The notes under the pieces are model-generated. The model searched no databases. It was given only the letters and a program-made list of their open reading frames with translations, and was not told where the DNA came from. Positions 20,463-37,353 of a stretch of 45,600 nucleotides of DNA are shown piece after piece. The number at the start of each line of letters is the position of its first letter. Position 1 is the first letter of the stretch. The stretch is from Bradyrhizobium sp. (GTDB lineage Bacteria > Pseudomonadota > Alphaproteobacteria > Rhizobiales > Xanthobacteraceae), in contig JAQGKC010000283.1 of the NCBI GenBank assembly GCA_028290305.1, positions 1 to 45,600 on the forward strand, read 5' to 3'. The position numbers and the translations under genes are program-made.

Positions 20463-20827
20463 GTTTCATACCTTTCTGGTGTGAAATTGAGTGTGCGTGC
20501 GTGATCCCGACCTTCTTGATCGGAGACGCCGCACGTTCGGAGTATCGCGCTAACAAAACCTGAATCAGTACTGCACCACCGATGTCCGGGTGGTGCCGGC
20601 GACGCACGGGCTTGCTGTCTTGGGGTCGTGCGACCCCGCAACACCGCTGATATTGCTGCATATTTTTGCGACACTGGCGTCGTTTACCAAGTGTTAACCG
20701 TGATCGGAAAGGATTGTGGCCGCATCGGCAACAGATCGATTCCCGCCCCGTTGGCCAGGAGATTCGACGTTCGTTCAAACTCATTGTGGTAACCACGCGC
20801 ATATCAGCGCGCCAACGGAGAACAGGC
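20463..20827. other. Divergent leader region flagellin 2 / flbT
   Basis: This 365-base gap contains two hairpins: GCACCACC (20573-20580) with GGTGGTGC (20589-20596), and GGGGTCG (20622-20628) with CGACCCC (20631-20637). They are 110-175 bases upstream of the flagellin start. They could lie in the 5' untranslated region, or in the flbT promoter region. I find no strong sigma-54 or sigma-28 match and no gene. Confidence 0.5.
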
Positions 20828-21244
20828 ATGGCTCTAAAGGTCGAACTCAAGCCCAATGAACGGATCATCATCGGCTCATGCGTGATCACCAATACCGATC
20901 AGCGCGCCCGCCTGTTGATCGACGGCGACAACGTTCCGATTTTGCGCGAGAAGGACATCATGACGCCGGCGACCGCCGACACGCCGGCGAAGCTCGTCTA
21001 TCTGGCCGTGCAGTTGATGTACATCTCGCCGGACCCGGTGGCCAACCACGGCACCTATTTCAGCCTGGTGCGCGATATCGTCACCGCCGCGCCGAGCACG
21101 TGGGCCATCATCGAGGGCATCAACAACAACATCATGACCGGCGATCTCTACCACGCGCTGAAGGAAGCGCGGAAGCTCGTCGCCTATGAGAAGAAGCTTC
21201 TCGATCACAACCAGGCTAATAATCGCAAGTCCGACGCCGCCTGA
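20828..21244 (+). CDS. flbT: Flagellin translation regulator FlbT
   Basis: In Caulobacter FlbT binds flagellin mRNA and promotes its decay until the hook is complete. The 138-residue product starts MALKVELKPNERIIIGSCVI and has ADTPAKLVYLAVQLMYISPD and the helical C-terminal DLYHALKEARKLVAYEKKLL, all typical. I start at ATG 20828, since the upstream in-frame reading is unlike the family. It is divergent from the flagellins it should control, with flaF on the far side. Confidence 0.95.
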   Translation: MALKVELKPNERIIIGSCVITNTDQRARLLIDGDNVPILREKDIMTPATADTPAKLVYLAVQLMYISPDPVANHGTYFSLVRDIVTAAPSTWAIIEGINNNIMTGDLYHALKEARKLVAYEKKLLDHNQANNRKSDAA

Positions 21245-21574: not shown

Positions 21575-23092
21575 TCACATCGCCAGTGGCGGAGAGCGCT
21601 CGACGGTCAACACGCATCCCTCACCGGGCCTCGATCGCTGCGCGCCGAATTCGAGTACCGCCGAGATCAGCGCGTCGATATCGCAAATGTCGGTACGGTG
21701 ATTGACGATGGCCGCCCGTATCGCGAGCTGGCCGTCGAGAACCGTCGTCGACGGAGCCGCGATCCCGGATTCCTGAATATCGATGACAATATCGCCATTC
21801 ACCTTGTTGGCGTCGGCAGCGCGATAACGGAAACAGACAATGTTGAGCTGCACCGGCGCCATCAACTCGAGCTTGGGTTCGGCCAGGATCCGGGCTTCCA
21901 GATATCCGGCGAGCGCGCAGGTGCGCGTGATCACCGCTCCCAGCTTTTCGGTCCCGTAGGTTTTCAGTGTGAACCATGTCTTGAGCGCCCGGAAACCGCG
22001 CGACAGATCTGGACCGAGATCGCACGGCCAGGATGAGCCGGCCGCGAGCCCTCGGGTCTCCCGCCGCAGATAGGCCGCCGGCGCCGAAAATGTCTCGCGG
22101 TGTTGCCGGCCGTCGCGAACAAGCAGGAAGCCGGCGTCGTAAGGCACCTGCCCCCATTTGTGAAAATCGAGCGCGATCGAATCGGCGCTTTCGATTCCAG
22201 CAAGCCGCGGCGCAAGCGCCGGCGAGAGAATTCCAAGAGCGCCATAGGCGCCGTCGACATGAAACCAGAGCTTCTCTTCCCGGCACAGCGCGCTCAGCGC
22301 CTGGAGATCGTCGATGGCGCCGATATCCACCGTGCCGGCCGAGGCAACGACGAGAAACGGCTTCAGGCCGGCCTCGCGATCCGCTGCGATCTGAGCGCGC
22401 AACGCCGCCACATCGATGCGGTGAAACTGATCGACCGCGATGCAGCGCAACGCGTCGCTGCCGAAGCCCGCGATATCCATCGCCTTTGTGATGCAGCCAT
22501 GCGCCGCCTTCGACGTGTAGGCGGTCAGCAACGCGCCTTCATTGCCGATGCCGTGTTGTCGGACGGACTGTCCCAGTGCCGCCGTTCGCGCCACCAGCAC
22601 GGCCATCAGATTGGCCATCGAGGTGCCGGTGACGAAAATGCCGCTCGCCTCGGCCGGGAAACCAAACATCGATCGGGTCCATTCGACCACCTGGCGCTCG
22701 ACCTCGATCGGCATGTGATCGCGCCCGCCGAGATTGGCATTCAGTCCGGCCGCCAGCATCTCCGCCAGCATGCCGACGGCAGTGCCGCCGCCATGCACCC
22801 ATCCCATGAAGCCGGGATGAACATTGCCCGTCGCATAGGGCACGACGCAATCGGTGAACTCGCGATAGACTTCGTCGAGCCCGGACGGCTGACGCGGAAG
22901 CTCTGCGCGAAAACGCGCACGAACCTCATCCGGTATCGGCGACCACACCGGACGCTCGCGGATGTTGGCGGCATAGTCGAACATGTCATCGAGCATGCGA
23001 TGACCCTGCGCACGGATGTCGTCCCAGTTTTGCGGATCGAGCGTCTCGCTCGATTCGGACGACAGATGTCCTTCGCGCAACACGATGGTCAT
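21575..23092 (-). CDS. PLP-dependent group II amino acid decarboxylase
   Basis: Family members decarboxylate aromatic amino acids, glutamate or similar substrates to amines. The 505-residue product contains the substrate-loop GNVHPGFMGWVHGGGTAVG, GIFVTGTSMANLMAVLVA, HVDGAYGALG (about 278-287) with the PLP-pairing Asp, and DFHKWGQVPYDAG with the Schiff-base lysine near residue 312. The start ATG 23092 shares ATGA with the stop of the ATP-grasp gene upstream and has AGGAG eight bases before, so the two are translationally coupled. Substrate is not predictable by eye. It is the third gene of the glycosyltransferase / ATP-grasp / decarboxylase operon. Confidence 0.9.
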   Translation of the reverse strand: MTIVLREGHLSSESSETLDPQNWDDIRAQGHRMLDDMFDYAANIRERPVWSPIPDEVRARFRAELPRQPSGLDEVYREFTDCVVPYATGNVHPGFMGWVHGGGTAVGMLAEMLAAGLNANLGGRDHMPIEVERQVVEWTRSMFGFPAEASGIFVTGTSMANLMAVLVARTAALGQSVRQHGIGNEGALLTAYTSKAAHGCITKAMDIAGFGSDALRCIAVDQFHRIDVAALRAQIAADREAGLKPFLVVASAGTVDIGAIDDLQALSALCREEKLWFHVDGAYGALGILSPALAPRLAGIESADSIALDFHKWGQVPYDAGFLLVRDGRQHRETFSAPAAYLRRETRGLAAGSSWPCDLGPDLSRGFRALKTWFTLKTYGTEKLGAVITRTCALAGYLEARILAEPKLELMAPVQLNIVCFRYRAADANKVNGDIVIDIQESGIAAPSTTVLDGQLAIRAAIVNHRTDICDIDALISAVLEFGAQRSRPGEGCVLTVERSPPLAM

Positions 23093-24342
23093 GCGGCACA
23101 CTCCTGATCTTTCTGGCTGCGGCGTTCAATCATCGCCGCGAACGCATCGAATATCCTGCGCATCTCGGGCGGCTTGTAGGGAAAGACGCCGGGCGGATCC
23201 ATGTCGTGGACAATAGCGGTATTGTCGGCCTCGAAGACCAGCAACGATCCGTTTTTGGTTTCGGCGCAATCCACGATGAAGTAATCGAGACCGATTCGCT
23301 CCGCGATGCCGCGAAGCGCCGTCGCATGGCGGCGCGCGAAGCCGATGTCGAAGGTGCGCATGAACGTCTCTTCTTCGAGACGCTTGCTCGCGCTCTGCGA
23401 CATTCCCGCGTTGAGATACCAGATGTCCCAGCGATCGGCGATCGCCATATGGCATGCGTAAGGCCGGCCATCGATGAAGGCAATCCGGCACTTGCGGAAC
23501 AGGCCGTCCCCATCAGAGTAATCGACAAAACGCGACAGGAAGAACTCCTGCTCCTGTCGCGTCTCGAGATAGCGTCCCATCGCGGCGCGGTCGTCGATCT
23601 TGGCAAGGCCCGCCCCCGCATGCGATCCGCGCGGCCTGACAATAACGGGAAATACAAGATCGGCTGCGACGTCGCCAAGCGCGAGCGATGCATGCGAAAT
23701 CTCTGACAATCGTTCGCGTGCGACGCCTGTCGTTGCCGGAATTTCAAGACCGTCGATTCCGCAAAGCAGATGATGCAGCTTGTCGCGATCCAGATTGCAG
23801 ACGAGATGCGGCGGGTTGAGAAGCGGCCGCGGCCAGCGCGATGCGGCTCGTTCGATCTTGCGCAGCGCATCGCGGCACTCTTCCGAGTCGGACGCGATCA
23901 CGATGGCGATGTCATGATCGGGCAGCGGCGCCGGCAATTCAACTTCCGGAATGACATAGAGCGTTAATAGTTCGATGCCGGATCCCTCCAGCAAGAACTC
24001 GATCGGCGTGTTGCTGCCCATGTCGGTCGCCGCCGCCAGCGCCAGAATGCGCAACCGAGGTCTCGTTACCGAGCACGGCGAACGGAATAGTTGATGCGAC
24101 GCAAGGATCTCATCCTGGATGGCGAGACCCGCCTGCTTGTCGCCCAGCAATTGCGCGATCAGCGACAAATCGAGCCCCTCGCCCGCTTCTGCGGTGCCAT
24201 CGATCAGCTTCGCGATCAGGGTTTGCCACAGCGGACGAAGATCGGTTCCGCTGACGGCCATTTTCGAGAGCCTGGCGACGCCAATACGGTCTGCGCAAGG
24301 AGACCGAGCACCACCGGTCTGTACGTCGGAAACCGATTCCAT
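23089..24342 (-). CDS. ATP-grasp family protein, copy 1
   Basis: ATP-grasp enzymes join a carboxylate to an amine or thiol through an acyl phosphate. The 417-residue product has an N-terminal domain of about 220 residues that I do not recognise (NTPIEFLLEGSGIELLTLYV, then DIAIVIASDSEE). The C-terminal ATP-grasp part has FPVIVRPRGSHAGAGLAKI (231-249), LDYFIVDCAETKNG and LLVFEADNTAIVHDMD with the metal-binding Glu and Asn. I chose ATG 24342 by comparison with copy 2 at 30619-31863, whose N-terminus lines up. It overlaps the upstream stop region closely. The acceptor and donor are unknown. Confidence 0.8.
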   Translation of the reverse strand: MESVSDVQTGGARSPCADRIGVARLSKMAVSGTDLRPLWQTLIAKLIDGTAEAGEGLDLSLIAQLLGDKQAGLAIQDEILASHQLFRSPCSVTRPRLRILALAAATDMGSNTPIEFLLEGSGIELLTLYVIPEVELPAPLPDHDIAIVIASDSEECRDALRKIERAASRWPRPLLNPPHLVCNLDRDKLHHLLCGIDGLEIPATTGVARERLSEISHASLALGDVAADLVFPVIVRPRGSHAGAGLAKIDDRAAMGRYLETRQEQEFFLSRFVDYSDGDGLFRKCRIAFIDGRPYACHMAIADRWDIWYLNAGMSQSASKRLEEETFMRTFDIGFARRHATALRGIAERIGLDYFIVDCAETKNGSLLVFEADNTAIVHDMDPPGVFPYKPPEMRRIFDAFAAMIERRSQKDQECAA

Positions 24343-24343
24343 C

Positions 24344-25117
24344 TCACGCGGCATCGGTCGCAAGCGCGGGTGCTGCAAACTGCGACGCGATATCGCCGTG
24401 GAAGACTGAAGGGCCGACATGATCGAGGCGGCTCTCGAGGTCAGCCCAGATTTCGCCGCCAATATCGGTCCAGCGCGTGCAGAACGCAAAATCTTCGCTG
24501 AGATAGGTCCCGCTCTTCGGATCGATCATGCATTCGAACAGCGCAAATCGATTGGGACTGCCCGCAAGCGCATCGAGCGAATGCTCGCGAAAGAACTGCA
24601 GCGATGCGTAAGCCGCGCACATCTTCTCGAACACGTGGCGCCGGATCATCAGAAATCCGGTCCCGGCATAACGCACGCGCGTAAAGCCGTTCACGACAGC
24701 GACATGATCGGGATCGTTGATCTCCAGCACGTAATCGAGCGCAGCGGACGCCACTTTCGGCCGGTTGCTCTCGATCACCCGTCTCGCCTTGTCCCAGTTG
24801 ACGCGCTTGATCGGATAGACGCCGGCCACCACGTCGGCGCCGGATTCGATCAGCCGGAACACTTGCTCGGGCTCGAACCCGATATCCGCATCCACGAACA
24901 GGAAGTGCGTCGCCATGGGGTCGTCGAGGAACAGCGTCATCAGATTGGCGCGCGCACGCGTAATCAGGGCGTCGCCATCCCGCATCAGAACCTTGAGTTC
25001 CACGTTGGACTTGGAGCGCAAGGCGCGCTGCAATTGGAAGATGGAGCTGGCGTAGATGCTGGAAACCTGCCCGCCGAAGCATGGCGTAGCCACCACAAGG
25101 TGAATTCGTTCGGTCAT
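24344..25117 (-). CDS. Glycosyltransferase-like protein (GT-A fold)
   Basis: The 257-residue product begins TERIHLVVATPCFGGQVSS and contains a DxD-type motif FLFVDADIGFEPEQV at about residues 73-87, with ARANLMTLF before it. This is the pattern of a GT-A nucleotide-sugar transferase or related small family. A histidine-bearing VGPSVFHGDIA lies near the C-terminus. There is no signal peptide. The ATG at 25117 follows GGAG. A small hairpin (GGCAGC / GCTGCC, 25131-25146) lies in its leader. It is the first gene of the operon with the ATP-grasp and decarboxylase genes. Donor and acceptor are unknown. Confidence 0.7.
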   Translation of the reverse strand: MTERIHLVVATPCFGGQVSSIYASSIFQLQRALRSKSNVELKVLMRDGDALITRARANLMTLFLDDPMATHFLFVDADIGFEPEQVFRLIESGADVVAGVYPIKRVNWDKARRVIESNRPKVASAALDYVLEINDPDHVAVVNGFTRVRYAGTGFLMIRRHVFEKMCAAYASLQFFREHSLDALAGSPNRFALFECMIDPKSGTYLSEDFAFCTRWTDIGGEIWADLESRLDHVGPSVFHGDIASQFAAPALATDAA

Positions 25118-25210
25118 GAATGGCTCCGAAGGCAGCAGATGCTGCCTGCATTCCTCACCAAACAGTAAATAGACGTGGTTAACGAAATCCTAACGCCGGC
25201 GGGCAGCCCA

Positions 25211-25235
25211 CCCAAAATGCCCGGCCATGCCGGGC
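25211..25235 (-). terminator. Rho-independent terminator of the TPR gene
   Basis: On the minus strand GCCCGGC, a three-base ATG loop and GCCGGGC are followed by ATTTTGGG. It begins at the last base of the TPR stop codon, so that gene is a separate unit from the glycosyltransferase operon. Confidence 0.7.
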
Positions 25236-26818
25236 TAGCTCAATTGCTCCAGTTCAGCGCGCACACGAACGATCACGCTGTCCCAGTCGCCGAAGGCCGG
25301 CTGCCGGAGCAATTTCGCGGTTGGGTACCAGGGAGTGTCGTCGCGGTTCCTCATCCAGCGAAAATCCGCGGCATAGGGAAGAAGGACCACGACCGGCTTC
25401 CCCAGCGCTCCCGCGAGATGCGCAACCGCCGTATCGACGGTGATCACGACATCGAGCAGTGAGATGATGGCGGCGGTATCGGCGAAATCGCGCAAGCCGC
25501 CGCCAAGGTGGACAAGGTTCGGCAGGCCAGCCAGCATGTCGCTGTCCGTAGCCCGCACATCGCTTTGAAGGCTGAAACACTGGACAGGCGGGTTCTCGAA
25601 CAGCGCAGCGAGACGCGCGAGCGCGATCGATCGGTTGCTGTCATTGTTGTGAGACGACGAGCCGGACCAGACAAATCCGGCACGCGGGCGCCCCGGCGGC
25701 AAACGATCGCGCCAATGATCCACGCGCTCCACGGGTGCTGCGAGATATGGAACGGCCGCCGGAATCGTGTCGGGTTGTGTTTTGAACGCGAAGGGAAGAC
25801 TGAGCAAAGGACAATGCAGGTCGAATGCCGGAAGCGGCGCGCCGGAAGCGAGGACAGTGACGCCTTCGAGCTGCGACAACAGCGGCTGCAGTTCCGGCTG
25901 AACCTCGCAGATCACCTTCGCCCCCTGACGCGCCAGCAACGGCGCATAGCGGATGAACTGGATGGTGTCGCCCAACCCCTGTTCGGCGTGGAGCAGAATG
26001 GTTTTGCCGGAGACCGACTCCTCTCCCAGCCATAACGGTGTTTGATACGGCCGGCGGTGCCGGGCAAATGCACCGGTCTTCCAGCGCCATTCATACTCTT
26101 TCCAGCCCGCATCGAAATCGCCCAGCGTCAGATGCGCCATCGCGGCTTCGAAATGGGCTTCGGGAAATTCCGGCGCGGCCGCGAGCGCAACCGTAAAGTC
26201 CGCGAGCGCTTCGACGGGCCGGTCAAGGCGGCGAAGCGCGTGACCGCGGTTGGTCAGGATCTGCGCATGACCGGGCGTCGCCGCAAGAGCTACGTCGTAA
26301 CTCGCCATTGCCTCCAGCGGCCGGTTGAATCGCAGAAGCGTATTGCCTCTGTTGACGAGAGCGCCCACATGGCTGGGATCGCTCGCCAGCACGGCGTCGT
26401 AGCTCTCGAGCGCATCGGCGATGTGGCCGATCGCAAGACAGGCGTTGCCGAGATTGTAGAGAATTTCCGGATGATCCGGCGCGAGCCGAAGCGCGTTACG
26501 GTAGCTCGAGATTGCCTCTTCGTGGCGTCCCATCGCATGAAGCGCCAGCCCGAGATTCGACAGCGCGCCCGAGGAATTCGAGTTGCTCTTGAGCGCCGCC
26601 GAAAGAAAGTGGAGCGCCTCGACCATGCGACGGCGCTGGAAGTTGAGCATGCCGAGCAGATGCAACGCATCGAAATCTTCCGGCCGGTATTCCAGAATCC
26701 CGGCGCACAGCTTCTCCGTCCTGCCGAGATCACCTTGCTGGAAAGAACTATAAGCCTGCCGCTGCAAGCGAGACAGGTTCGGCATCCGCCCAGATGTTTT
26801 TTTCGATTTCGCAGACAA
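25235..26818 (-). CDS. TPR-repeat protein with GT9-like glycosyltransferase domain
   Basis: The 527-residue protein has about seven to eight TPR units in residues 15-260, with repeated ALSNLGLALHAMGRHEEA-like and ILYNLGNACLAIG segments. A C-terminal domain resembles GT9 heptosyltransferases: ILLHAEQGLGDTIQFIRYAP, RAGFVWSGSSSHNNDSNRS and VITVDTAVAHLAGALGKPVV. Such proteins are often found near flagellin genes and may glycosylate proteins. The start is TTG 26818, with ATG 26785 as an alternative. Its own terminator sits at the stop. A flagellin-glycosylation role is inferred from place only. Confidence 0.8.
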   Translation of the reverse strand: MSAKSKKTSGRMPNLSRLQRQAYSSFQQGDLGRTEKLCAGILEYRPEDFDALHLLGMLNFQRRRMVEALHFLSAALKSNSNSSGALSNLGLALHAMGRHEEAISSYRNALRLAPDHPEILYNLGNACLAIGHIADALESYDAVLASDPSHVGALVNRGNTLLRFNRPLEAMASYDVALAATPGHAQILTNRGHALRRLDRPVEALADFTVALAAAPEFPEAHFEAAMAHLTLGDFDAGWKEYEWRWKTGAFARHRRPYQTPLWLGEESVSGKTILLHAEQGLGDTIQFIRYAPLLARQGAKVICEVQPELQPLLSQLEGVTVLASGAPLPAFDLHCPLLSLPFAFKTQPDTIPAAVPYLAAPVERVDHWRDRLPPGRPRAGFVWSGSSSHNNDSNRSIALARLAALFENPPVQCFSLQSDVRATDSDMLAGLPNLVHLGGGLRDFADTAAIISLLDVVITVDTAVAHLAGALGKPVVVLLPYAADFRWMRNRDDTPWYPTAKLLRQPAFGDWDSVIVRVRAELEQLS

Positions 26819-27361
26819 CAGGCCGTCTTTCCGCCGGAACGCACCAAATCGAAAATCATCCGCGGCCTCGACAACAACATGTCGCCCTGAGGCTACCGGA
26901 TCGCTTTCGAATCAGCCAAGGCCCGTAAGTTACCATTTTCCGCTGCATCTGCCTCGCAAGGCGCGATGGGTTTCGTCCACGGTCTGCCATTACGCGGGCA
27001 ATCGCGGGCGGCCATTCCACTTCGAATCACGATGCAGCCAGGTTCGGCGCGGGAAGCTGAACATGTTGGCCGCACGTCCTCCGCCACTCCAAACCGGGTA
27101 CTATTTCGTTCACGCTCCAAACGCCAAGCCTTCATCTTCTGACGTTGCTCCGTGATTGGGTGGTTGAGACCGCGCGGCCGTTTCGGACGGGAGCCGTTAA
27201 GCGTTCGCCGCAGAAAGAGAGTGTGCTTCATGTCCTTCCATTGACCGGAAACCGACGTGCTATCTCGTCCGACGCATGCGCGCTGGGGTCTAAGGCATCC
27301 GGCGACCTGTGTGGCCGCCGGATTCTTTTGTAGCTCCTCCCGCCGACGCGGCGGAAAGACG
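26819..27361. other. Intergenic region with no supported gene
   Basis: This 543-base gap lies between the TPR gene and the SnoaL-like gene. The one longish open frame on the minus strand is Arg/Cys/Pro-rich without recognisable features. I see no clear promoter or repeat. Confidence 0.5.
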
Positions 27362-27811
27362 TTAAGCCGCGCGCATAAGGCCGAGTTGCTGCAGAGCGGT
27401 GACTCCATCGTCGAGACCGATTTCCTCCACGATTTTTCCGTCCCTGAGCTTCAATACCGTCGTTCCCGTGAATTTCATCTTCCGGCCGGTATTGGCTGGC
27501 AACGCTCCCATCAGGAAATCGCTGAACGCGGGTCCGGTGTGCGTTCCACCGCCTTCCCATCGGCCGACAACGTAATCACCTTCCGCGATGAGATCGGCTG
27601 CTCCCCAGAAATTGAGATCGGGGAAGGCTTCTCGAAAGCCCTTCATGAAGGCCTTGATGTCATTGCGACCCTTGCGTGGCTCGTGGAGCGAATACTGCAG
27701 GAGCATGTCGGGCGCAGCGAGTTCATCGACAATTGCGAGGTTGCAGGTCTTACCCCAGAAATCCGTGAACCATCGACCCACGATAGCCTTGTTGTCATCT
27801 TCTTTGGACAT
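27362..27811 (-). CDS. SnoaL-like / ester cyclase family protein
   Basis: The 149-residue product has the cone-shaped NTF2 fold pattern of SnoaL-like proteins: AIVGRWFTDFWGKTC, DIKAFMKGFREAFPDLNF, AEGDYVVGRWEGGGTHTG and TTVLKLRDGKIVEEIGLDDG. Such proteins include polyketide cyclases and many small binding or isomerising enzymes. ATG 27811 has a strong GGAGAAGAG Shine-Dalgarno upstream. No biosynthetic partner is next to it, so the function is open. Confidence 0.82.
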   Translation of the reverse strand: MSKEDDNKAIVGRWFTDFWGKTCNLAIVDELAAPDMLLQYSLHEPRKGRNDIKAFMKGFREAFPDLNFWGAADLIAEGDYVVGRWEGGGTHTGPAFSDFLMGALPANTGRKMKFTGTTVLKLRDGKIVEEIGLDDGVTALQQLGLMRAA

Positions 27812-28116
27812 GATCTCTTCTCCAATTTTCAATCCGGTTGTCGCCGCGATTGGCGGACGCTCCGAGAATAAATTGGGATGTCGTGCAGCTGCACTCCGGT
27901 TCTTGTCGGGGTATCGAAGAGACGGAAGGGGCGACGAGTGAGTGGGCGCTGATGCGGCGGCCTCCGGAAACGCGCCGCGAGATCGCGCCCCACCGTTTCG
28001 ATCGAAGCGCTCCCGCCGCTTGGATCGCCCGCTTTGATTAGAGAGCAAGAATCGAAGTTCGCATCCTCCCCTCCTGATTATATTCGCGGGAACAGGAATT
28101 GATCACGGAGGGCATG
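27812..28116. other. Divergent intergenic region
   Basis: About 305 bases separate the SnoaL-like gene and the hypothetical at 28117. It holds a good TATAAT-like hexamer on the minus strand (28077-28082) and an AGGAGG sequence before an eight-codon open frame that I do not accept as a gene. I see no longer gene. Confidence 0.45.
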
Positions 28117-28587
28117 ATGAAGCTTGTGCGATTTGACGACCGGAAAACGGGCTTACTGGTCCAACTCCCGGCCGGGTTACACGTGATCGACGTCACGGCA
28201 AGCCTCGGCGCGCTTTCGCCTGATGACCCCATATCCAACGGCGTGCTCTATGGCATCCTTAGGGATCGAGGTAATTGGGCTCCGCTGATCGCGCACTGGG
28301 AGCTGGTGCGCGTCGGATTGAGACGGTTGACCGTTATGGCCACGACGAACCCCGATCATTCCGGCCTCGTCATTCGCAGGCTGGACGAAATCCATTTGGA
28401 CCCTTCCTCCGTCAATCAGACGGATATCGCCGCTCTGGAGATCGCGGAATTGGGCGAAGTCGCGCATGATCCCACGGGACGCGAAACGATGCTTCGGCAG
28501 ATAGCTCTCCCGCCGCGCGTAGACGAATGCCCGGAGGGCCGCATCGTGGAGTTGGACGCGCTCCGAAGGCTTAAATCAGACGCCTGA
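28117..28587 (+). CDS. Hypothetical protein with FAH N-terminal-like start
   Basis: The 156-residue product begins MKLVRFDDRKTGLLVQLPAG, which recalls the N-terminal domain of fumarylacetoacetate hydrolase family enzymes, whose catalytic domain is absent here. The rest (LYGILRDRGNWAPLIAHWEL, then a charged helical tail) is not familiar. GGAGG sits five bases before ATG 28117. It may be a stand-alone small protein or a truncated FAH-family gene. Codon use is like the neighbours. Confidence 0.55.
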   Translation: MKLVRFDDRKTGLLVQLPAGLHVIDVTASLGALSPDDPISNGVLYGILRDRGNWAPLIAHWELVRVGLRRLTVMATTNPDHSGLVIRRLDEIHLDPSSVNQTDIAALEIAELGEVAHDPTGRETMLRQIALPPRVDECPEGRIVELDALRRLKSDA

Positions 28588-28788
28588 CCGCACCCCGCTC
28601 AACGGTTTCCTGCCGTCCAATTCAACCAACCCGGAAATCGGGTGGCGCGGGCATGTTCTATCCCGCCTAATGCTCGCACCGGAGCGCCTCCGCTTTCTGC
28701 CGCCGCGCAGATACGCATACGGAGCAACGCAGGAGCGCCTGACCCTCAACTGGGGAGCACCAAAGAACTTTCTCGAAAGGATAAACCG

Positions 28789-28977
28789 ATGGACACGGCG
28801 AAAAATCACGAGGCAGTGCAAACCAGGAATGACCCGCGATGGTCCGCCGTCGTAGACCGAGCGGCAGCGTTCGACGGAAAGTTTGTCTACGTCGTCAAGA
28901 GCACGGGCATCTATTGTCGCCCGAGTTGTCCGTCGCGGCAACGCGCGCTGCTTAAGGCGGAAGCCAAGCGCGCGTAA
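28789..28977 (+). pseudogene. ada: Remnant of ada (methyl-DNA receiver domain)
   Basis: The short product of 62 residues has [18 protein letters not shown] and [15 protein letters not shown], which is the N-terminal part of the Ada zinc domain. Only the first two of four zinc-binding cysteines are present; the frame ends before the second pair and the AraC and methyltransferase domains. A complete Ada is about 350 residues. AAAGGA precedes the ATG. I take it as a truncated gene, though a short product could still be made. Confidence 0.7.
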
Positions 28978-29186
28978 CCGCAAAAAGCCCAACTCAAACT
29001 CCCCGTTTGAGGGCAAGAAACGGGAAGCCGGTTGCCGGCCTTGAGATCGTCGCCAAAGAAAGGTTTACTAACGGCACGCGCTTGTTGGGCTGCGGGCCTG
29101 CAGCTGCCGATAAAGGTGGAGAACGATGCCGTCGTTCGCCCTATTTGTCGAGCCGCTGCAGCTCCGCTTGGAGTGGGGCATCACAA

Positions 29187-30581
29187 GTGTTTCGCGGGCA
29201 ATTCTCCATTGTCGCTTTGGCGCTGGGCAACTTCGTCGTTGGTCTCAGCATACTTCTGCCAACAGGAATGCTGGCTGAACTCTCCTCTAACCTTGGTGTC
29301 ACCATCGGGACGGTGGGACTGCTGATCAGCCTTGGTGCGGCCGTCGTGTGCGTGTCGCCGCCGTTCGTAGCCTGGATTACAAGCCGAATTGACCGACGTG
29401 TGCTTTTGGGCGCAATTTTGCTTTGGATTGCATTAGGCCACGCGGCGTCCGCCTTCGCGCCAAATTACCCGAGCCTTTTGGTCATCCGCCTGGCAATGCT
29501 TGCCTTCGCCGGTGCCTTCACGCCCTTGGCAGCCGGTACCGCGGCCCTATTGGTCCCGGAAGACAAGCGCGCCTCGGCCATCGCATCGGCGCTGCTGGGG
29601 TGGGCGCTCGCGATCGCGGTTGGATTGCCGCTGATCTCGGTAAGCGCGCCGCTGATTGGCTGGCGAGCGACCTATAGTCTTGTCGGCATGCTCGCTGCGG
29701 TGGGCTTTCTCGCGCTTCTGGTTGGATTACCGAAGGGACTTAAAGGGACGCCCGTGATTTTTGCGACGTGGCGGGCGGTCGGCCGCAATCGTCAGCTTCT
29801 TCTGCTATTGTTGATCACCAGTTTGCTGGCAGCCGGCCAACTCGTCGTCATCGCGTTTGTCGGACCGTTGTTGTCGGATCTCACGGGTGCTACGCCTCGC
29901 GGGATCGCCATCGTGTTCCTGTTTTTCGGGGTGATGACGCTCATCGGGAATGTCTGCGCGTCTCAAGTTGTTCGGGTGTGGGGCCCGTTCAAAACATCCG
30001 CCGTTTTCATGGTTTGCATCGTGATCGGCGCCGCGTTATGGGCGATCGGTGCCGGGACATTTACTTTGATGGCAGCAGGCGCCGCGATCTGGGGTCTCGG
30101 GTTTGCTGCCGCAAGCGCAATGCAACAGGTGAGATTGATTGCAGCGGCTCCTGCGCTGGCGACAGCGTCCGTGGCAATCAATAACACGGCGTTGTATCTC
30201 GGCCAGGCCATCGGCTCAGGAATAGGCAGCGTCCTGTTCGTCCAGGGAAAATTGATCACCATGGGCTTCGCGGCTCTGGCCCTGGTTGCTTCGTCGCTTG
30301 GCGTTCTGTGGCTGACGCGGTTCGCGCCGGAACGGTTGGGGGTTCGCTTCGATACCGATACGATTCAACTGCTGGCTCGCGTATTCGATCAAGCCCTGGA
30401 GCGTTATCTGAAAAACAAACCGGTCGTGAAAGACCAGGCGGGCCTGCACTCCGAGCTTGCCAGACATATCGTCGCCGTAGCCCAAACCGGTGAACGTGAC
30501 GAAGATCGCCTCGCTACCAGGGGTTATCTGATGCTCCGATCGCTGGAAGCTGCGACCAGCATGGAGCCGTCATTCGACTAG
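29187..30581 (+). CDS. MFS transporter with extra C-terminal domain
   Basis: The product of about 464 residues has 12 predicted membrane segments and MFS features, including the loop RIDRRVLLGAILLW and the repeated Gly-rich helices. It resembles sugar or drug efflux permeases of the AraJ/YdhP kind. After the last helix (WLTRFAPERLGV, residue 380 or so) there is a soluble tail of about 75 residues with LARHIVAVAQTGERDEDRLA, a pattern I know from small stand-alone proteins of this bacterial group. I chose GTG 29187, preceded by GGAG, because the upstream in-frame region has no MFS features. Substrate unknown. Confidence 0.8.
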   Translation: MFRGQFSIVALALGNFVVGLSILLPTGMLAELSSNLGVTIGTVGLLISLGAAVVCVSPPFVAWITSRIDRRVLLGAILLWIALGHAASAFAPNYPSLLVIRLAMLAFAGAFTPLAAGTAALLVPEDKRASAIASALLGWALAIAVGLPLISVSAPLIGWRATYSLVGMLAAVGFLALLVGLPKGLKGTPVIFATWRAVGRNRQLLLLLLITSLLAAGQLVVIAFVGPLLSDLTGATPRGIAIVFLFFGVMTLIGNVCASQVVRVWGPFKTSAVFMVCIVIGAALWAIGAGTFTLMAAGAAIWGLGFAAASAMQQVRLIAAAPALATASVAINNTALYLGQAIGSGIGSVLFVQGKLITMGFAALALVASSLGVLWLTRFAPERLGVRFDTDTIQLLARVFDQALERYLKNKPVVKDQAGLHSELARHIVAVAQTGERDEDRLATRGYLMLRSLEAATSMEPSFD

Positions 30582-30618
30582 ACTAGGGCGGCGAAATAAC
30601 CTGCACAACTTCGCACCA

Positions 30619-31863
30619 TCACGCCGCGCGTTCCCGGCCGCCCTCGGCGCGGCGGTACAGCATCGCCGCGAATGCCTCGAAGATCTTTCGCATTTGCGGA
30701 GGCTTGTAGGGATACAGATCCGGCGAATCCATATTGTGCACGACCGCGGTATTGTCCGCCTCGAATATCAACAATTCGCCGAGCTTGTTTTCCGCGCAGT
30801 CGATCGTGAAATAATCCAGGCCCACCCGATCGATCATGGCGGCCAGTGCGTGTTGATGGCGAACCGCGAAAGCATGATCGAACGTGCGCATGAAATTTTC
30901 TTCTTCGAGGCGCTTGGTCTCGCTGAATGCCATGCCCGCATTGAGATACCAGATGTCCCAGCGGTCGACGATCGCCATGTGGCAGGCATAGGGCCGGCCG
31001 TCGACGACGACGACCCGGTATTTGCGAAACAACCCGTCATCATTGGCGTAATCGACAAAGCGCGAGACGAAAAATTCCTGCTCCGGCCGTTCGGCAAGAT
31101 ATCGGCCGACCGCCGCGCGATCATCGAGTTTGGCAAGCCCGATGCCGGCATGCGACCCGCGCGGCCGGATGATGATCGGGAACTGCAAATCGGCCGCAAT
31201 ATCCACGAGCAGGTCGGTCGGCTGACCCAGCTCCGATAATCGTGCCCGCGTCACGGATGTGGTCGCCGGGATATCAAGTCCTTCGATCCCGTCAAGCAGA
31301 CGGTGCAGCTTGTCGCGATCGAGGTTGCCGACAAGGTGCGGCGGATTGAGCAGCGGCCGCGGCCAGCGCGGCAGCGCCCATTCGATTTTGCGCAGCGCAT
31401 CCCGGCACTCCTCCGAATCGGATGCGATCACGATCGCGATGTCATGATCGGGCGGCGGCGCGGGCAATTCCGTTCCCGCGACGACGTAAAGCGTCAGTAG
31501 CTCGATCCCGGAGTGTTCGAGCAAAAATTCGATGGGCGTGTTGCCACCCATGTCCATTGCGGCCGCAAGCGCGAGAACGCGCAGTCTCGGTTTTTCCACC
31601 GAACAGGGCGAGCGAAACAATTGATGAAAGGCGAGCACTTCGGCCTGAATGGCCAGGCCTATCTGCTTTTCACCCAGGAGCTGCACGATCAGCGACAGAT
31701 CGAGCCCCTCGCCCGCGCCAGCCGTTCCGTCGGCGATTTTCGACATGATCTCGTCCCGCATCGGACGAAGATCGGTTCCGCCGAACGCCATCGTCGTCAG
31801 CTTGGCAAATCCGATCCGATCCGCACAAACGAGATTGGCGCTGTCGGTGCACTCAAGCTCCAT
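30619..31863 (-). CDS. ATP-grasp family protein, copy 2
   Basis: The 414-residue product is a close paralogue of the protein at 23089-24342; most positions agree by eye from GLDLSLIVQLLG to the end. The ATP-grasp features are FPIIIRPRGSHAGIGLAKL, LDYFTIDCAENKLG and LLIFEADNTAVVHNMD. The N-terminus ELECTDSANLVCADRIG matches that of copy 1 in place. ATG 31863 has GGAG in front and overlaps the end of the PLP enzyme gene by 11 bases, so translation is coupled. It closes a run that begins with flgE. Confidence 0.8.
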   Translation of the reverse strand: MELECTDSANLVCADRIGFAKLTTMAFGGTDLRPMRDEIMSKIADGTAGAGEGLDLSLIVQLLGEKQIGLAIQAEVLAFHQLFRSPCSVEKPRLRVLALAAAMDMGGNTPIEFLLEHSGIELLTLYVVAGTELPAPPPDHDIAIVIASDSEECRDALRKIEWALPRWPRPLLNPPHLVGNLDRDKLHRLLDGIEGLDIPATTSVTRARLSELGQPTDLLVDIAADLQFPIIIRPRGSHAGIGLAKLDDRAAVGRYLAERPEQEFFVSRFVDYANDDGLFRKYRVVVVDGRPYACHMAIVDRWDIWYLNAGMAFSETKRLEEENFMRTFDHAFAVRHQHALAAMIDRVGLDYFTIDCAENKLGELLIFEADNTAVVHNMDSPDLYPYKPPQMRKIFEAFAAMLYRRAEGGRERAA

Positions 31864-33502
31864 GGGAAATCTCCGCTGAATTGAGACCGTCCATATGCGC
31901 AAGCAGCCATTCGGTCTTCGAGACGATTGCGCCGACGCGGGCGAGCTCGCGCTCCAGATTCGCGCGCGCGGTGTCCTCGTCGGGTGACCATGTCTCGGTG
32001 ACGAAGCGCGCGCCTGCGCAGATACGAAGCGCCGCGATGGGGTCCGCCCCGGAACGATCCAGTGCGACGGGTTGGCCGACGAGGCAAACATTGGCCGCGA
32101 TATCTCGATCGCGCGTATCCGTAGAAGCGACATTTCGCGCATCCCGGGCAAGCGCACGATAGATCTTCCTGCAATCGCTTAACGGGAAAACGCGGTCATC
32201 GCGCCGGATCACAAACGGAAAGATCGTCGGCTGAGCCAGTTCTTCATCGTCGAGGCTGTTGCCTTCGGGCCTTTGCTGTGGCGGCAACAGGCGAAGGGAC
32301 GGCGAGGACGCGATGATTCGCTCCACAGCTTTGCCGAACATCATCAGAGCCGATCGCCTGAAGTCGCCGGGCACGTCATGATAGGCCCGGATTTCCTCGA
32401 GTGCGGCTTCCCAGCGCAGCCATTGGCCAAAATTTGCCCGGACCGGAAAACGCGACCGCAGGTTCGGCCAATTGTTCGGCCAGTCGCTGCGGCTACTGTA
32501 TTCGCGGAGCCCCGCAGCAACCTCGGTGACCGCATCGATCTCCCTGGAGAGATCTGCAGGCACCAGCAGCGCACCGCTGAAGGCAGGTCCCGTAAAAAAC
32601 TTCGAGCCGGTGACAATCACCATATATCCGCGATCGAGATATTTTCGCAGCCGTGGGCGGCCGAGCCGCATCTGGCACGCGTCGACGACGATCTGGACCC
32701 GATCGGGCCAGCGTGCCGCGATCTCGTCGAGGCATTGGTCGCTCGGGGCCCGCCAGCCCAGCTTCGATGAATCCATGATTTGCAGAAGAACGTTGGCCCC
32801 ATTGGCGACAGACCTTTCGACCGCCCCGAGAACCAGTGAATCGGTTTCGGCTTGCGGACGGAAATCGCCGTTCTCGTCGAGCAACCCAAGCGCGACGCTG
32901 GTTACGGAGTGAGCCAGGCCGGCAATGGGCTCGCCCTTTCGAACCCGGCTTCCATGCGCCGTCGCGGCATTGAAATGACGTCCGCGCGCGGTATGTTCGG
33001 TTCCACTGCCGGTTTGATCGGCAGCCACGACGACCGTCGTCAACTCAGGACCAAGTAGCGCGCGCGCCAGGAACAGCGCCTGAAGCTGCGAATCGGTGCC
33101 CGACGGAGAAAAGACGACTTCGGCCTTGGCTGAGGATAATCCGAGACAGGCCTTCAATTCGTCGCGCATCGTTTCGATGCGTGCATCGAACGTAGTCTCG
33201 ATGCCTGTCGCAACGGCGGACCGCATCAGCGTGTTCCGCGCATGGCTCGCACGATCGTAAGCCCGCTCTGAAATCGATGTCGCTGTGCTTGACGCGAAAC
33301 TCAGCGTGCCCGGGCACGGTAAGGGCGTGCAGCCATATCCGTTGGTCCCGCTGGCGGGGTCGATGCTCAGTCGCGGATCGCCGCCGCAACCGAGCAGACG
33401 GTCCAGCGGCGCGAACAGGCCGGCCATAGCGGAAGCTGAGCGGGATTGATCCCGAGCGATCGGATTCTCGGCCGCATCTATTCGAACGCCACCGTCTAGC
33501 AT
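31853..33502 (-). CDS. PLP-dependent enzyme (aminotransferase-fold, decarboxylase/desulfurase-like)
   Basis: The 549-residue product has a PLP-enzyme fold: VVFSPSGTDSQLQALFLAR (about 130-148), QIVVDACQMRLGR with the PLP-pairing Asp near 274, and VTGSKFFTGPAFSG with the likely Schiff-base lysine near residue 301. It belongs to fold type I but not clearly to one named family. It differs from the group II decarboxylase at 21575. I prefer ATG 33502; GTG 33565 would add 21 residues. It follows flgL by 82 bases with no visible terminator and overlaps the ATP-grasp gene. Substrate unknown. Confidence 0.75.
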   Translation of the reverse strand: MLDGGVRIDAAENPIARDQSRSASAMAGLFAPLDRLLGCGGDPRLSIDPASGTNGYGCTPLPCPGTLSFASSTATSISERAYDRASHARNTLMRSAVATGIETTFDARIETMRDELKACLGLSSAKAEVVFSPSGTDSQLQALFLARALLGPELTTVVVAADQTGSGTEHTARGRHFNAATAHGSRVRKGEPIAGLAHSVTSVALGLLDENGDFRPQAETDSLVLGAVERSVANGANVLLQIMDSSKLGWRAPSDQCLDEIAARWPDRVQIVVDACQMRLGRPRLRKYLDRGYMVIVTGSKFFTGPAFSGALLVPADLSREIDAVTEVAAGLREYSSRSDWPNNWPNLRSRFPVRANFGQWLRWEAALEEIRAYHDVPGDFRRSALMMFGKAVERIIASSPSLRLLPPQQRPEGNSLDDEELAQPTIFPFVIRRDDRVFPLSDCRKIYRALARDARNVASTDTRDRDIAANVCLVGQPVALDRSGADPIAALRICAGARFVTETWSPDEDTARANLERELARVGAIVSKTEWLLAHMDGLNSAEISHGA

Positions 33503-35475: not shown

Positions 35476-37353
35476 TTATATCTGAGCCTGCAGCAAGGTG
35501 TTCATCATGCTTTGAACGACCGACATCACGTGAGCATTGGCGGCGTAGGAATTTTGCAGCGCGATCAGGTTCGACATTTCGGTATCGATGCTGACGCCGG
35601 CCACGGAATTGAACTTCTGTTGCAACGTACTGACCACGACGTCCTGGCCCTGCTGCAATTGCGTCGCCGTGGTGGCCGCATTGCCCTGCAGGCTCAGGAA
35701 CTGCTGCATGTAGCTGGTGATCGTGCCCGAGAATGGCGACGACGTCGAACCGAGTCCGGTTTGCGACGAGTACGTGAATGTCCCCGACGTCAGTTGCGAA
35801 TAGAGAAAATCCGAGCGTGTGGTGTCGCCAGGCGCCGTTGCCGGCGACGTGCTGTAAACGCTGAGACTTGATGGATTGTTCAGCAGCGCCGGATTGACCG
35901 TGATGCGTCCTGCAAGGCCTGTCATTTGCGAGCCGCCGCCGGTGATCGCGCCGGTGTAGAGCGAATTGCTGTCGGTAAACAACGGCAGCTGCGTGCTTCC
36001 GCTCGTAAGCGACTGGGTCGTCGTCGTCACCGAAGCGGCATTGACCGTCGCCGCGGATGTTCCGTTATCAACCACGCTTAATAACGTCGCGGGTGGACCA
36101 GGTGGATTCGAGAACGTCAGATTGCTGCCGCCGAGCGCCGCGTTCAATTGGGAAACGACCGACGCCATTCCGCCGGAGAAATTGACGCCGACCAGTGTTG
36201 GATTGGCACCGGGCGCATTCTTCAGCGGCAGCGCCGACGAATCCGTCACATTCACGATGGATATCTGATGCTGGGTGTTGGTCGCGCTGTCGGTATAGGT
36301 CAGGTTGATCGTGTTGCCCGGCAACATGTTGGCCGTATCGACACTGAAGCCTGCCGGCGGTCCGGTGACCGCGGTGCCGGCCGTGGTTTGATCGGACATC
36401 GCGCTCGACATCGACGCCGCCAACTGATCGACCTGCGTCTGCGCCTGCACCAGCGTCTGGTCGCGCAGTTTCAGGTCGGCGGCGATCTGGCCCGAACTGA
36501 GCGTCTTGTTCGCGACCATGTCGTAGCTGGCGCCGTTCGGAAGTTTGATCGTGAGGGCGCCGACGCCGGATTTGGTCGGGTCGCTGTTGTACAGCGAGTT
36601 GGGGGTCAGCGCTCCCGATGAGGAGAACGACATCTGGGACGCCAGACTGCCGCCCACGAGCTGAACACCGGAATTCGTGAAGACGCTGGTCTGGTTGGAA
36701 GCGTCGGTGACGGCCCGAACATCCATCAATTTCGACAGGTCATTGATCGCGTTGTCACGCTGATCCATCAGCGTCGCCGCGGCGGGATCGGTCGGACTCA
36801 GTCCCTGCAACTGGGTGTTGATGGTCGCGATCTGGTTCATATCCGTGTTGGCCTGGCCCACGGACGTGCCGATATCCTGTTCGACGTTCGAGCGCAGCGA
36901 CTGGATGCCCTGCGACGTTGTGTTGAGCTGTTGTGCCAGCGATTGCGCCGCCGCCAGCGCCGAGGTCTGCGCGGACTGGCTGCCCTGACTTGTCGACAGC
37001 GCCTGCAACGCCGAGGTGAAATTGCTGAACGCCGTTTCGAGCGTACCGCTGGCCCCGGGCGTGCCGTAGACGCTTTGCAACTGGCCCAGAATATTGGCCA
37101 TCTGGTCGGCATAGGCGCCGCCGGAGGTTTCCGTGCGCAACTGGCTCTGGACGTACAGATCGAGCTGGCGATTGACGCCGGTGACCTGGACGCCCGTGCC
37201 CACGCCACCACTGGCCAGTTCGACCTGGTTCGCAGTTTGGGTGACGTAGCCGGGCGTTTGCGCGTTCGCAACATTCCCCGACACGATCGAAAGCGCGGCC
37301 TGGTTGGCGCGCAGACCGGACATCGCAGTGGCTAGGGCTGAACTCAAACCCAT
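35476..37353 (-). CDS. flgK: Hook-associated protein FlgK (HAP1)
   Basis: FlgK is the first hook-filament junction protein. The 625-residue product begins GLSSALATAMSGLRANQAAL with SIVSGNVANAQTPGYVTQT, the standard axial-protein start. It ends DTEMSNLIALQNSYAANAHV, with a C-terminal coiled-coil typical of the family. The length is normal for FlgK. It lies 56 bases downstream of flgE in the same direction. Confidence 0.95.
   Translation of the reverse strand: MGLSSALATAMSGLRANQAALSIVSGNVANAQTPGYVTQTANQVELASGGVGTGVQVTGVNRQLDLYVQSQLRTETSGGAYADQMANILGQLQSVYGTPGASGTLETAFSNFTSALQALSTSQGSQSAQTSALAAAQSLAQQLNTTSQGIQSLRSNVEQDIGTSVGQANTDMNQIATINTQLQGLSPTDPAAATLMDQRDNAINDLSKLMDVRAVTDASNQTSVFTNSGVQLVGGSLASQMSFSSSGALTPNSLYNSDPTKSGVGALTIKLPNGASYDMVANKTLSSGQIAADLKLRDQTLVQAQTQVDQLAASMSSAMSDQTTAGTAVTGPPAGFSVDTANMLPGNTINLTYTDSATNTQHQISIVNVTDSSALPLKNAPGANPTLVGVNFSGGMASVVSQLNAALGGSNLTFSNPPGPPATLLSVVDNGTSAATVNAASVTTTTQSLTSGSTQLPLFTDSNSLYTGAITGGGSQMTGLAGRITVNPALLNNPSSLSVYSTSPATAPGDTTRSDFLYSQLTSGTFTYSSQTGLGSTSSPFSGTITSYMQQFLSLQGNAATTATQLQQGQDVVVSTLQQKFNSVAGVSIDTEMSNLIALQNSYAANAHVMSVVQSMMNTLLQAQI

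What the first reader, a model, noticed from the sequence alone, without database searches (positions are those of the whole stretch)
21575..33502. Two PLP-enzyme / ATP-grasp modules flank an unrelated gene patch in a flagellar region
The sequence shows two close ATP-grasp paralogues (23089-24342 and 30619-31863), each translationally coupled to a different PLP enzyme: a group II decarboxylase (21575-23092) and a fold-type-I enzyme (31853-33502). Established knowledge: ATP-grasp enzymes form amide or similar bonds from carboxylates and amines, and group II decarboxylases make amines. Inference: each module may make or attach an amine-derived group, with the decarboxylase supplying an amine to the ligase. 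The N-terminal domain shared by both ATP-grasp proteins is not one I recognise. This is the best candidate here for an undescribed system.
Basis: partly seen in the sequence, partly recalled or inferred. Interest (0 to 1): 0.75.

Follow-up and report, generated by a model that had tools for sequence, protein, structure and literature searches.

The report
One split amide-making cassette beside flagellins
What looked like two enzyme pairs is probably one undescribed three-enzyme cassette, split around two copies of its ligase inside a flagellar gene cluster, that likely makes an amide-containing chemical group, perhaps for decorating flagella.

Summary
In detail: the four genes are where stated, the ATP-grasp paralogues are 72% identical, and each overlaps a different PLP-enzyme gene. 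The two-module reading does not hold. In 44 of 76 related loci one ATP-grasp gene sits contiguously with GTx (glycosyltransferase-like), the PLP enzyme and the decarboxylase. Old paralogues of both ATP-grasp types fill that same slot, so the window shows one pathway, split. Outside the family the trio is side by side in 12 of 24 wide loci, in varied order. In a phylum sample a decarboxylase orthologue is present in 14 of 17 genomes with the PLP enzyme and 1 of 63 without. The ATP-grasp is RimK-like in fold with a helical, TPR-like N-terminus; the PLP enzyme is fold-type I, without a Pfam or NCBIfam match, and often missing. Best reading: decarboxylase and ligase make an amide-bearing substituent, tailored by the PLP enzyme and used here for flagellin modification. 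The chemistry is inferred from family and fold. The flagellar role rests on gene position, with modest support from other lineages. The substrate is unknown. Ten literature searches showed no description of the trio.

The parts
31853..33502 (-). PLP: fold-type-I, class-V-like PLP enzyme, 549 aa, no Pfam or NCBIfam family
   Evidence: no family; model; fold; D274, Q277 and K301 motif (the assignment of these residues is from recalled class V motifs)
30619..31863 (-). AG2: ATP-grasp ligase with TPR-like N-terminus, 414 aa; overlaps PLP by 11 nt
23089..24342 (-). AG1: ATP-grasp ligase paralogue, 417 aa
   Evidence: model; fold; D358, E371, D373 at the spacing of ATP-grasp metal ligands (spacing recalled from Ddl)
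21575..23092 (-). DEC: group II PLP decarboxylase, 505 aa; overlaps AG1 by 4 nt
24344..25117 (-). GTx: glycosyltransferase-like protein, 257 aa, 1 nt upstream of AG1; next to PLP in 44 of 76 loci
   Evidence: no Pfam hit; only a weak PHROG glycosyltransferase match, E 0.006; no PDB match
25235..26818 (-). TPR + Glyco_transf_9 protein, FlmG-like in layout; present in 10 of 76 loci
   Evidence: FlmG layout from passages of PMC7591256
18879..20462 (-). flagellin
   Evidence: PF00669 and PF00700 over cut-off
17033..18652 (-). flagellin
   Evidence: PF00669 and PF00700 over cut-off
20666..21244 (+). FlbT
   Evidence: PF07378, 140.8 bits
33585..35465 (-). probable FlgL (by position and my reading; no Pfam support)
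35476..37353 (-). FlgK
   Evidence: PF22638 and PF06429
37410..39248 (-). hook protein FlgE
   Evidence: PF06429, PF22692 and PF00460

Best explanation
The four genes are one biosynthetic cassette (PLP enzyme, ATP-grasp, decarboxylase, with GTx), split in this genome because it keeps both old ATP-grasp paralogues with other genes between them. Likely working: the group II decarboxylase turns an amino acid into an amine; the RimK-like ATP-grasp activates a carboxylate as an acyl phosphate and joins it to that amine (or to an amino sugar); the class-V-like PLP enzyme tailors the amino acid or product (transamination, racemisation or elimination) where present; GTx, and in this lineage the TPR-glycosyltransferase, place the decorated sugar on flagellin before export. 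Shown: gene content, linkage, co-occurrence, folds, conserved catalytic residues. Inferred: every chemical step, the order of steps and the flagellin target. The substrate is unknown.
Against: The trio is often away from flagellar genes (Rhodopseudomonas, Mesorhizobium, the Rhizobium plasmid). Flagellin presence does not discriminate: 24 of 25 PLP+ genomes against 329 of 398 in the whole sample. Outside the family only 3 of 23 PLP genomes have a flagellin seen within 15 kb (G617, G850, G248; list was cut), P about 0.01 under my assumed 2% chance. PLP is absent from 11 of 13 genomes tested because their AG locus showed no PLP, so it is not essential; DEC was not found in 2 AG genomes (G1083, G006). 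9 of the 24 outside loci have PLP without AG or DEC beside it, some at contig ends. No glycan, amide or modified flagellin has been measured.
Confidence: 0.5

Rival explanations
1. The trio makes a free small metabolite or an envelope substituent unrelated to flagellin; in Bradyrhizobium it merely settled in a flagellar cluster.
For: Stand-alone copies in Rhodopseudomonas, Mesorhizobium and on a Rhizobium tumorigenes plasmid; PLP beside an NRPS/PKS gene in R. jaguaris; PLP beside dTDP-sugar-type genes in L169 (named from my reading of the sequences).
Against: Position between FlgL and the flagellins is kept across Bradyrhizobium, together with GTx; separate flagellar links in L182 and L191; a chemoreceptor gene lies directly upstream of PLP in the Rhodopseudomonas-type loci, confirmed by Pfam in L063 only.
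Confidence: 0.3
2. The ATP-grasp acts directly on the flagellin polypeptide, like RimK on ribosomal protein S6, with the TPR-like N-terminus gripping flagellin and the amine from DEC as the added group.
For: Closest folds RimK and ArgX/LysX, which act on proteins; TPR-like N-terminus; FlmG uses its TPR domain to bind flagellins (PMC7591256 passages); AG occurs near flagellins without adjacent PLP or DEC in L057.
Against: The cassette also exists far from flagellar genes; MdnC, ITPK and Ddl folds are also close, so fold does not fix the acceptor; the TPR-like part is only four helices in the model.
Confidence: 0.12
3. One reading: two separate modules with two products.
For: Two ATP-grasp paralogues kept in the window and in 5 further Bradyrhizobium-type loci, L001, L003, L004, L006 and L008, of which PLP is seen in L004 and L006.
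Against: Both ATP-grasp types serve the same PLP-AG-DEC slot in single-copy loci.
Confidence: 0.04
4. A coenzyme side branch like methanofuran or methylofuran: tyrosine decarboxylase plus amine-glutamate ATP-grasp ligase plus PLP transaminase.
For: Same three enzyme types (PMC8141765 passages).
Against: DEC scores 83 bits on the MfnA model TIGR03812, cut-off 299.4; I recognised no C1-coenzyme genes among the listed neighbours (by eye, not scanned).
Confidence: 0.04

Closest known systems
RimK and ArgX/LysX ATP-grasp amide ligases
   Different: 12-21% identity in the fold rows; below the RimK family cut-off (16 against 143.4 bits); extra TPR-like N-terminus; PLP and decarboxylase partners
C. 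difficile type B flagellin modification (PMC5207245, PMC5207246; passages)
   Same: Flagellar locus with glycosyltransferases, an ATP-grasp and an aminotransferase; product is an amide-bearing glycan cap with taurine, Ala and Gly
   Different: No group II decarboxylase named there (0 occurrences of the word in PMC5207245); the ATP-grasp is a Pfam PF13535 type; no sequence comparison was made here
Caulobacter FlmG flagellin glycosyltransferase (PMC7591256; passages)
   Same: The window protein at 25235-26818 has the same layout, N-terminal TPR and C-terminal glycosyltransferase
   Different: No direct sequence comparison made; the window protein is 527 aa, FlmG 596; it is present in 10 of 76 loci only
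Shewanella sfmABCDE flagellin modification (PMC3765264; passages)
   Same: A 412-residue ATP-grasp-domain protein (SfmE) in a flagellin-modification operon
   Different: Partners are a PseI-like protein, a TPP enzyme, a reductase and a methyltransferase, not PLP enzymes
Methanofuran/methylofuran pathway (MfnA, MfnD, MfnC; PMC8141765 passages)
   Same: Decarboxylase, ATP-grasp amine ligase and PLP enzyme
   Different: MfnA model not met; different genomic setting

Membership tests
Group II PLP decarboxylases (PF00282) | Pfam gathering score | tested here: met
   225 bits, cut-off 27
Group II PLP decarboxylases (PF00282) | Catalytic Lys, stacking His, Asp, and loop Tyr (decarboxylase rather than aldehyde synthase) | tested here: met
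   K312, H198, D280, Y341 in 100 of 100 family sequences, aligned with solved relatives; roles recalled
MfnA tyrosine decarboxylase; DABA decarboxylase RhbB; PanP | NCBIfam equivalog cut-offs | tested here: not met
   83 of 299.4, 197.6 of 900, 127.3 of 606.1 bits
RimK family (TIGR00768) | Curated score cut-off | tested here: not met
   16 against 143.4 bits for AG1; no hit for AG2
ATP-grasp superfamily | Fold and metal-binding residues | tested here: met
   models and folds; residues
TPR domain proteins | TPR repeats in the ATP-grasp N-terminus | tested here: inconclusive
   No TPR hit in the window proteins; TPR_12 in 20 of 52 relatives at E up to 1, the strongest TPR hits coming from one full-TPR relative; helical hairpins in the model
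Fold-type-I, class V PLP enzymes | Fold | tested here: met
Aminotran_5 (PF00266) or any NCBIfam PLP family | Family score | tested here: not met
   No Pfam or NCBIfam hit
Flagellin modification system | Flagellin mass or glycan depends on the genes | not testable with these tools
   Needs mutants and mass spectrometry
Flagellin modification system | Genes beside flagellin or hook genes | tested here: met
   Window and 71 of 76 loci; not in many distant loci

The most novel reading that the evidence does not exclude
The cassette makes a C2 amine with an anionic head (taurine, 2-aminoethylphosphonate or phosphoethanolamine, from cysteate, phosphonoalanine or phosphoserine) and caps flagellin sugars with it through an amide, a Gram-negative counterpart of the taurine-peptidylamido glycan of C. 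difficile type B. Hints, each from one locus: DEC-PLP beside phosphonoacetaldehyde hydrolase (340.9 bits, cut-off 220), a TIGR03364 oxidoreductase and an aliphatic-sulfonate binding protein in L114; AG beside a taurine-type binding protein just under cut-off (300.4 of 304.25) in L241; AG overlapping serC in L240. An Arg (R124) is invariant in 100 of 100 DEC sequences and is not Arg in the first three of the five solved relatives aligned, where I could place it; it could hold an anionic head. Most other loci show no such neighbours.
Probability: 0.12. Interest if true: 0.8.

Novelty: new variant of a known kind. Interest (0 to 1): 0.55.

Why it matters
If true, a widespread but unnamed three-enzyme cassette, including a PLP enzyme family with no Pfam or NCBIfam model, would gain a testable function, and the position in Bradyrhizobium flagellar clusters points to flagellin as the first target to examine. 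Flagellin decoration affects motility and recognition by plant immunity, and I saw no report on it for Bradyrhizobium in the search listings. The cassette also offers a clean example of one pathway being mistaken for two because of gene order.

Tried and rejected
Two independent modules: rejected from synteny and the tree. Recent tandem duplication of the ATP-grasp: my first idea (note), dropped when the tree put AG1 and AG2 in old separate groups (midpoint root, some weak forks). Flagellin presence as proof of a flagellar role: dropped, because the background is 329 of 398. Methylofuran: disfavoured. Graspetide maturation: no match to flagella, decarboxylase or PLP in passages of PMC8939145, and no precursor gene was looked for. 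Substrate of DEC from PDB relatives: inconclusive. GTx against PDB: nothing. PHROGs for AG1 and PLP: nothing. The neighbour hints for sulfonates and phosphonates are single loci and were not tested statistically. No padloc or Rfam search was made.

Limits. The phylum searches score few first-look candidates per genome (3), so PLP-negative genomes may include misses. The 63 PLP-negative genomes are an evenly spaced pick from the 398; the 17 PLP-positive ones are those of the 25 that carried handles from G545 on; 8 were left out because they came from earlier draws. Genomes are not independent (some are close kin). Neighbour genes were mostly named by eye from their first residues; only those were checked against families. 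The list of flagellin places was cut. Loci at contig ends undercount neighbours. The 2% chance used for the 3 of 23 test is my assumption.

Full report
What was checked. All four genes of the finding are present on the minus strand at the stated coordinates. The ATP-grasp proteins AG1 (23089-24342) and AG2 (30619-31863) are 72% identical. DEC (21575-23092) is a group II decarboxylase (PF00282, 225 bits). The PLP gene (31853-33502) has no Pfam or NCBIfam hit. Overlaps are 4 nt for AG1/DEC and 11 nt for PLP/AG2; GTx (24344-25117) ends 1 nt before AG1. Around them lie two flagellins, FlbT, FlgK and FlgE, with FlgI and FlgA further off. No whole genome is held for the window; the nearest named relatives are Bradyrhizobium.

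One cassette, not two modules. A scan of one genome per species with an alignment of 11 ATP-grasp proteins gave 76 loci: mostly Bradyrhizobium, plus Rhodopseudomonas, Tardiphaga and a few others (141 stretches encoded relatives, the best 80 were kept). In 44 of 76 the order GTx-PLP-AG-DEC is contiguous, in 54 PLP-AG-DEC is contiguous, and in 71 AG-DEC is contiguous; all 44 have one AG in the locus. Over the 76 loci, PLP was seen in 61, DEC in 72, GTx in 60 and flagellar genes in 71; several loci are cut by contig ends. The five without flagellar genes are L032 (short contig), L047, L061, L063 and L067.

The two ATP-grasp types. In a tree of 84 rows AG1 falls in a group of 21 (support 98/96) with single-copy relatives such as strain BTAi1, while AG2 falls with rows on the other side, near the single-copy main Bradyrhizobium group (midpoint rooted, so old duplication with differential loss and lateral exchange are both possible). 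Of the 44 contiguous loci, 9 carry an AG1-type gene and 35 one from the other side. Two AG genes were seen in L001, L003, L004, L006, L008, L057 and the window; the second gene of L057 is a distant TPR-bearing relative. In the window, then, PLP-AG2 and AG1-DEC are two halves of one cassette.

The trio outside this group. Profile searches with PLP found it in 11 of 297 genomes of the order, 3 of 247 of one family, 25 of 398 of the phylum and 21 of 198 of the home family. I fetched 37 wide loci from those hits. All three genes are side by side in 22, PLP with DEC only in 5, PLP with AG only in 1, and PLP alone in 9, some at contig ends. Of these, 24 loci lie outside the home family: 12 with all three, 3 with DEC only, 9 with PLP alone. 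Three orders occur: PLP-AG-DEC, DEC-AG-PLP and AG-PLP-DEC. A Rhizobium tumorigenes plasmid has AG-PLP-DEC with no flagellar gene annotated within 8 kb. In R. rhenobacensis (L047) PLP and AG share one open frame, which may be a fusion or a sequencing error.

Co-occurrence. Among 80 genomes of the phylum sample (17 PLP+, 63 PLP-), a DEC match of 46% identity or more is present in 14 of 17 and 1 of 63 (G722) (Fisher 6.5e-12). The three PLP+ misses are G658, G809 (no match) and G854 (37%). AG at 500 bits or more is in 11 of 17 and 0 of 63; weaker AG matches occur in G850 (PLP+) and in G602, G547 and G687 (PLP-). Where AG is missing, PLP or DEC can sit beside other ATP-grasp types: sugar-transfer-associated ATP-grasp in L115 and L186, and Ddl-like in L173 and L174. 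On a Paraburkholderia plasmid an AG relative is overlapped by serC, itself a class V enzyme by recall.

Against tight dependence. PLP was absent from 11 of 13 genomes that I chose because their AG locus showed no PLP; some are incomplete bins, but B. erythrophlei GAS478 (L015) is an isolate. No DEC was found in G1083 and G006, which have AG. So AG with DEC looks like the core, and PLP an accessory.

Flagellar link. For: the conserved position in Bradyrhizobium; L182, where FliD and FliS (Pfam) lie upstream of DEC-AG-PLP with a flagellin on the same contig about 7.6 kb away; L191, with FlaF and FlbT around PLP-AG; G850 and G248, with flagellins 9.6 and 14.1 kb away; G007, where AG sits with flagellins while PLP and DEC are on another contig. 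A chemoreceptor gene precedes the trio in Rhodopseudomonas-type loci (Pfam in L063; others by eye). Against: flagellin is in 42 of 44 PLP genomes tested but also in 329 of 398 overall, so presence says little; outside the home family 3 of 23 genomes have a flagellin seen within 15 kb, P about 0.01 at an assumed 2%; and many copies are elsewhere.

Precedents. FlmG of Caulobacter has an N-terminal TPR domain, tested for binding to flagellins, and a C-terminal glycosyltransferase (PMC7591256, passages); the window protein at 25235-26818 has that layout. SfmE of Shewanella carries an ATP-grasp domain in a flagellin-modification operon (PMC3765264, passages). The C. difficile type B locus has an ATP-grasp gene, and its flagellin glycan ends in a taurine-Ala-Gly cap (PMC5207246 and PMC5207245, passages and abstract). 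In B. diazoefficiens the subpolar flagellins FliC1-4 are bll5843-bll5846 (PMC4823718, passages); that the cassette lies beside these is my inference from L045 and similar loci.

Literature. Ten searches listed no paper describing this trio; most subscription papers are not in that library.

Judgement. That the genes form one pathway is well supported. That DEC and AG make an amide is probable from family and fold. Use for flagellin in this genome is the best reading at about even odds. The chemistry is open; the boldest reading, an anionic C2 amine cap, rests on single-locus hints and an invariant Arg.

Noticed in passing
L057:3002-6864: A full TPR plus ATP-grasp protein next to flagellins, followed by a 722-aa protein with a weak HAD hydrolase match (E 3e-5, below cut-off); a similar pair is in L114 15360-18972.
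   Followed up: partly
L114:7326-13387: DEC-PLP on the same strand as a TIGR03364 oxidoreductase and phosphonoacetaldehyde hydrolase, with a divergent aliphatic-sulfonate binding protein.
   Followed up: partly
L242:1-17326: Distant PLP relative beside an NRPS/PKS gene, with an NTP transferase, a DgaE-like PLP protein, a GHMP kinase and a CDP-alcohol phosphatidyltransferase on a Rhizobium jaguaris plasmid.
   Followed up: partly
L169:8105-10285, L171:9119-11395, L172:9275-11494: PLP relatives carry an N-terminal extension of about 170-230 residues; Pfam gave no family for L169 and L171.
   Followed up: partly
L173, L174, L175: PLP relatives divergent from a Ddl-like ATP-grasp gene (Pfam in L173 and L174; L175 by likeness).
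   Followed up: partly
L170:5749-13210: DEC-AG-PLP followed by an ABC permease and an ATPase with an AAA-associated C-terminus.
   Followed up: partly
L055: A record titled Frankia sp. RB7 carries a Bradyrhizobium-type flagellar locus and its ATP-grasp groups with Bradyrhizobium; probably a mislabelled or mixed assembly.
   Followed up: no
L047:8354-11215: PLP and ATP-grasp in one open frame of about 954 codons in Rhodopseudomonas rhenobacensis.
   Followed up: no
L241:4051-9175: Cupriavidus plasmid: the ATP-grasp match spans two annotated ORFs, beside glycosyltransferases and a gene annotated flgB whose Pfam match is below cut-off.
   Followed up: partly
window 27362-30581: A SnoaL-like protein and an MFS transporter lie inside the patch; the transporter is below the cut-offs of the drug-efflux models it matches.
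   Followed up: no
window 12736-15087: TonB-dependent receptor within the flagellar region.
   Followed up: no
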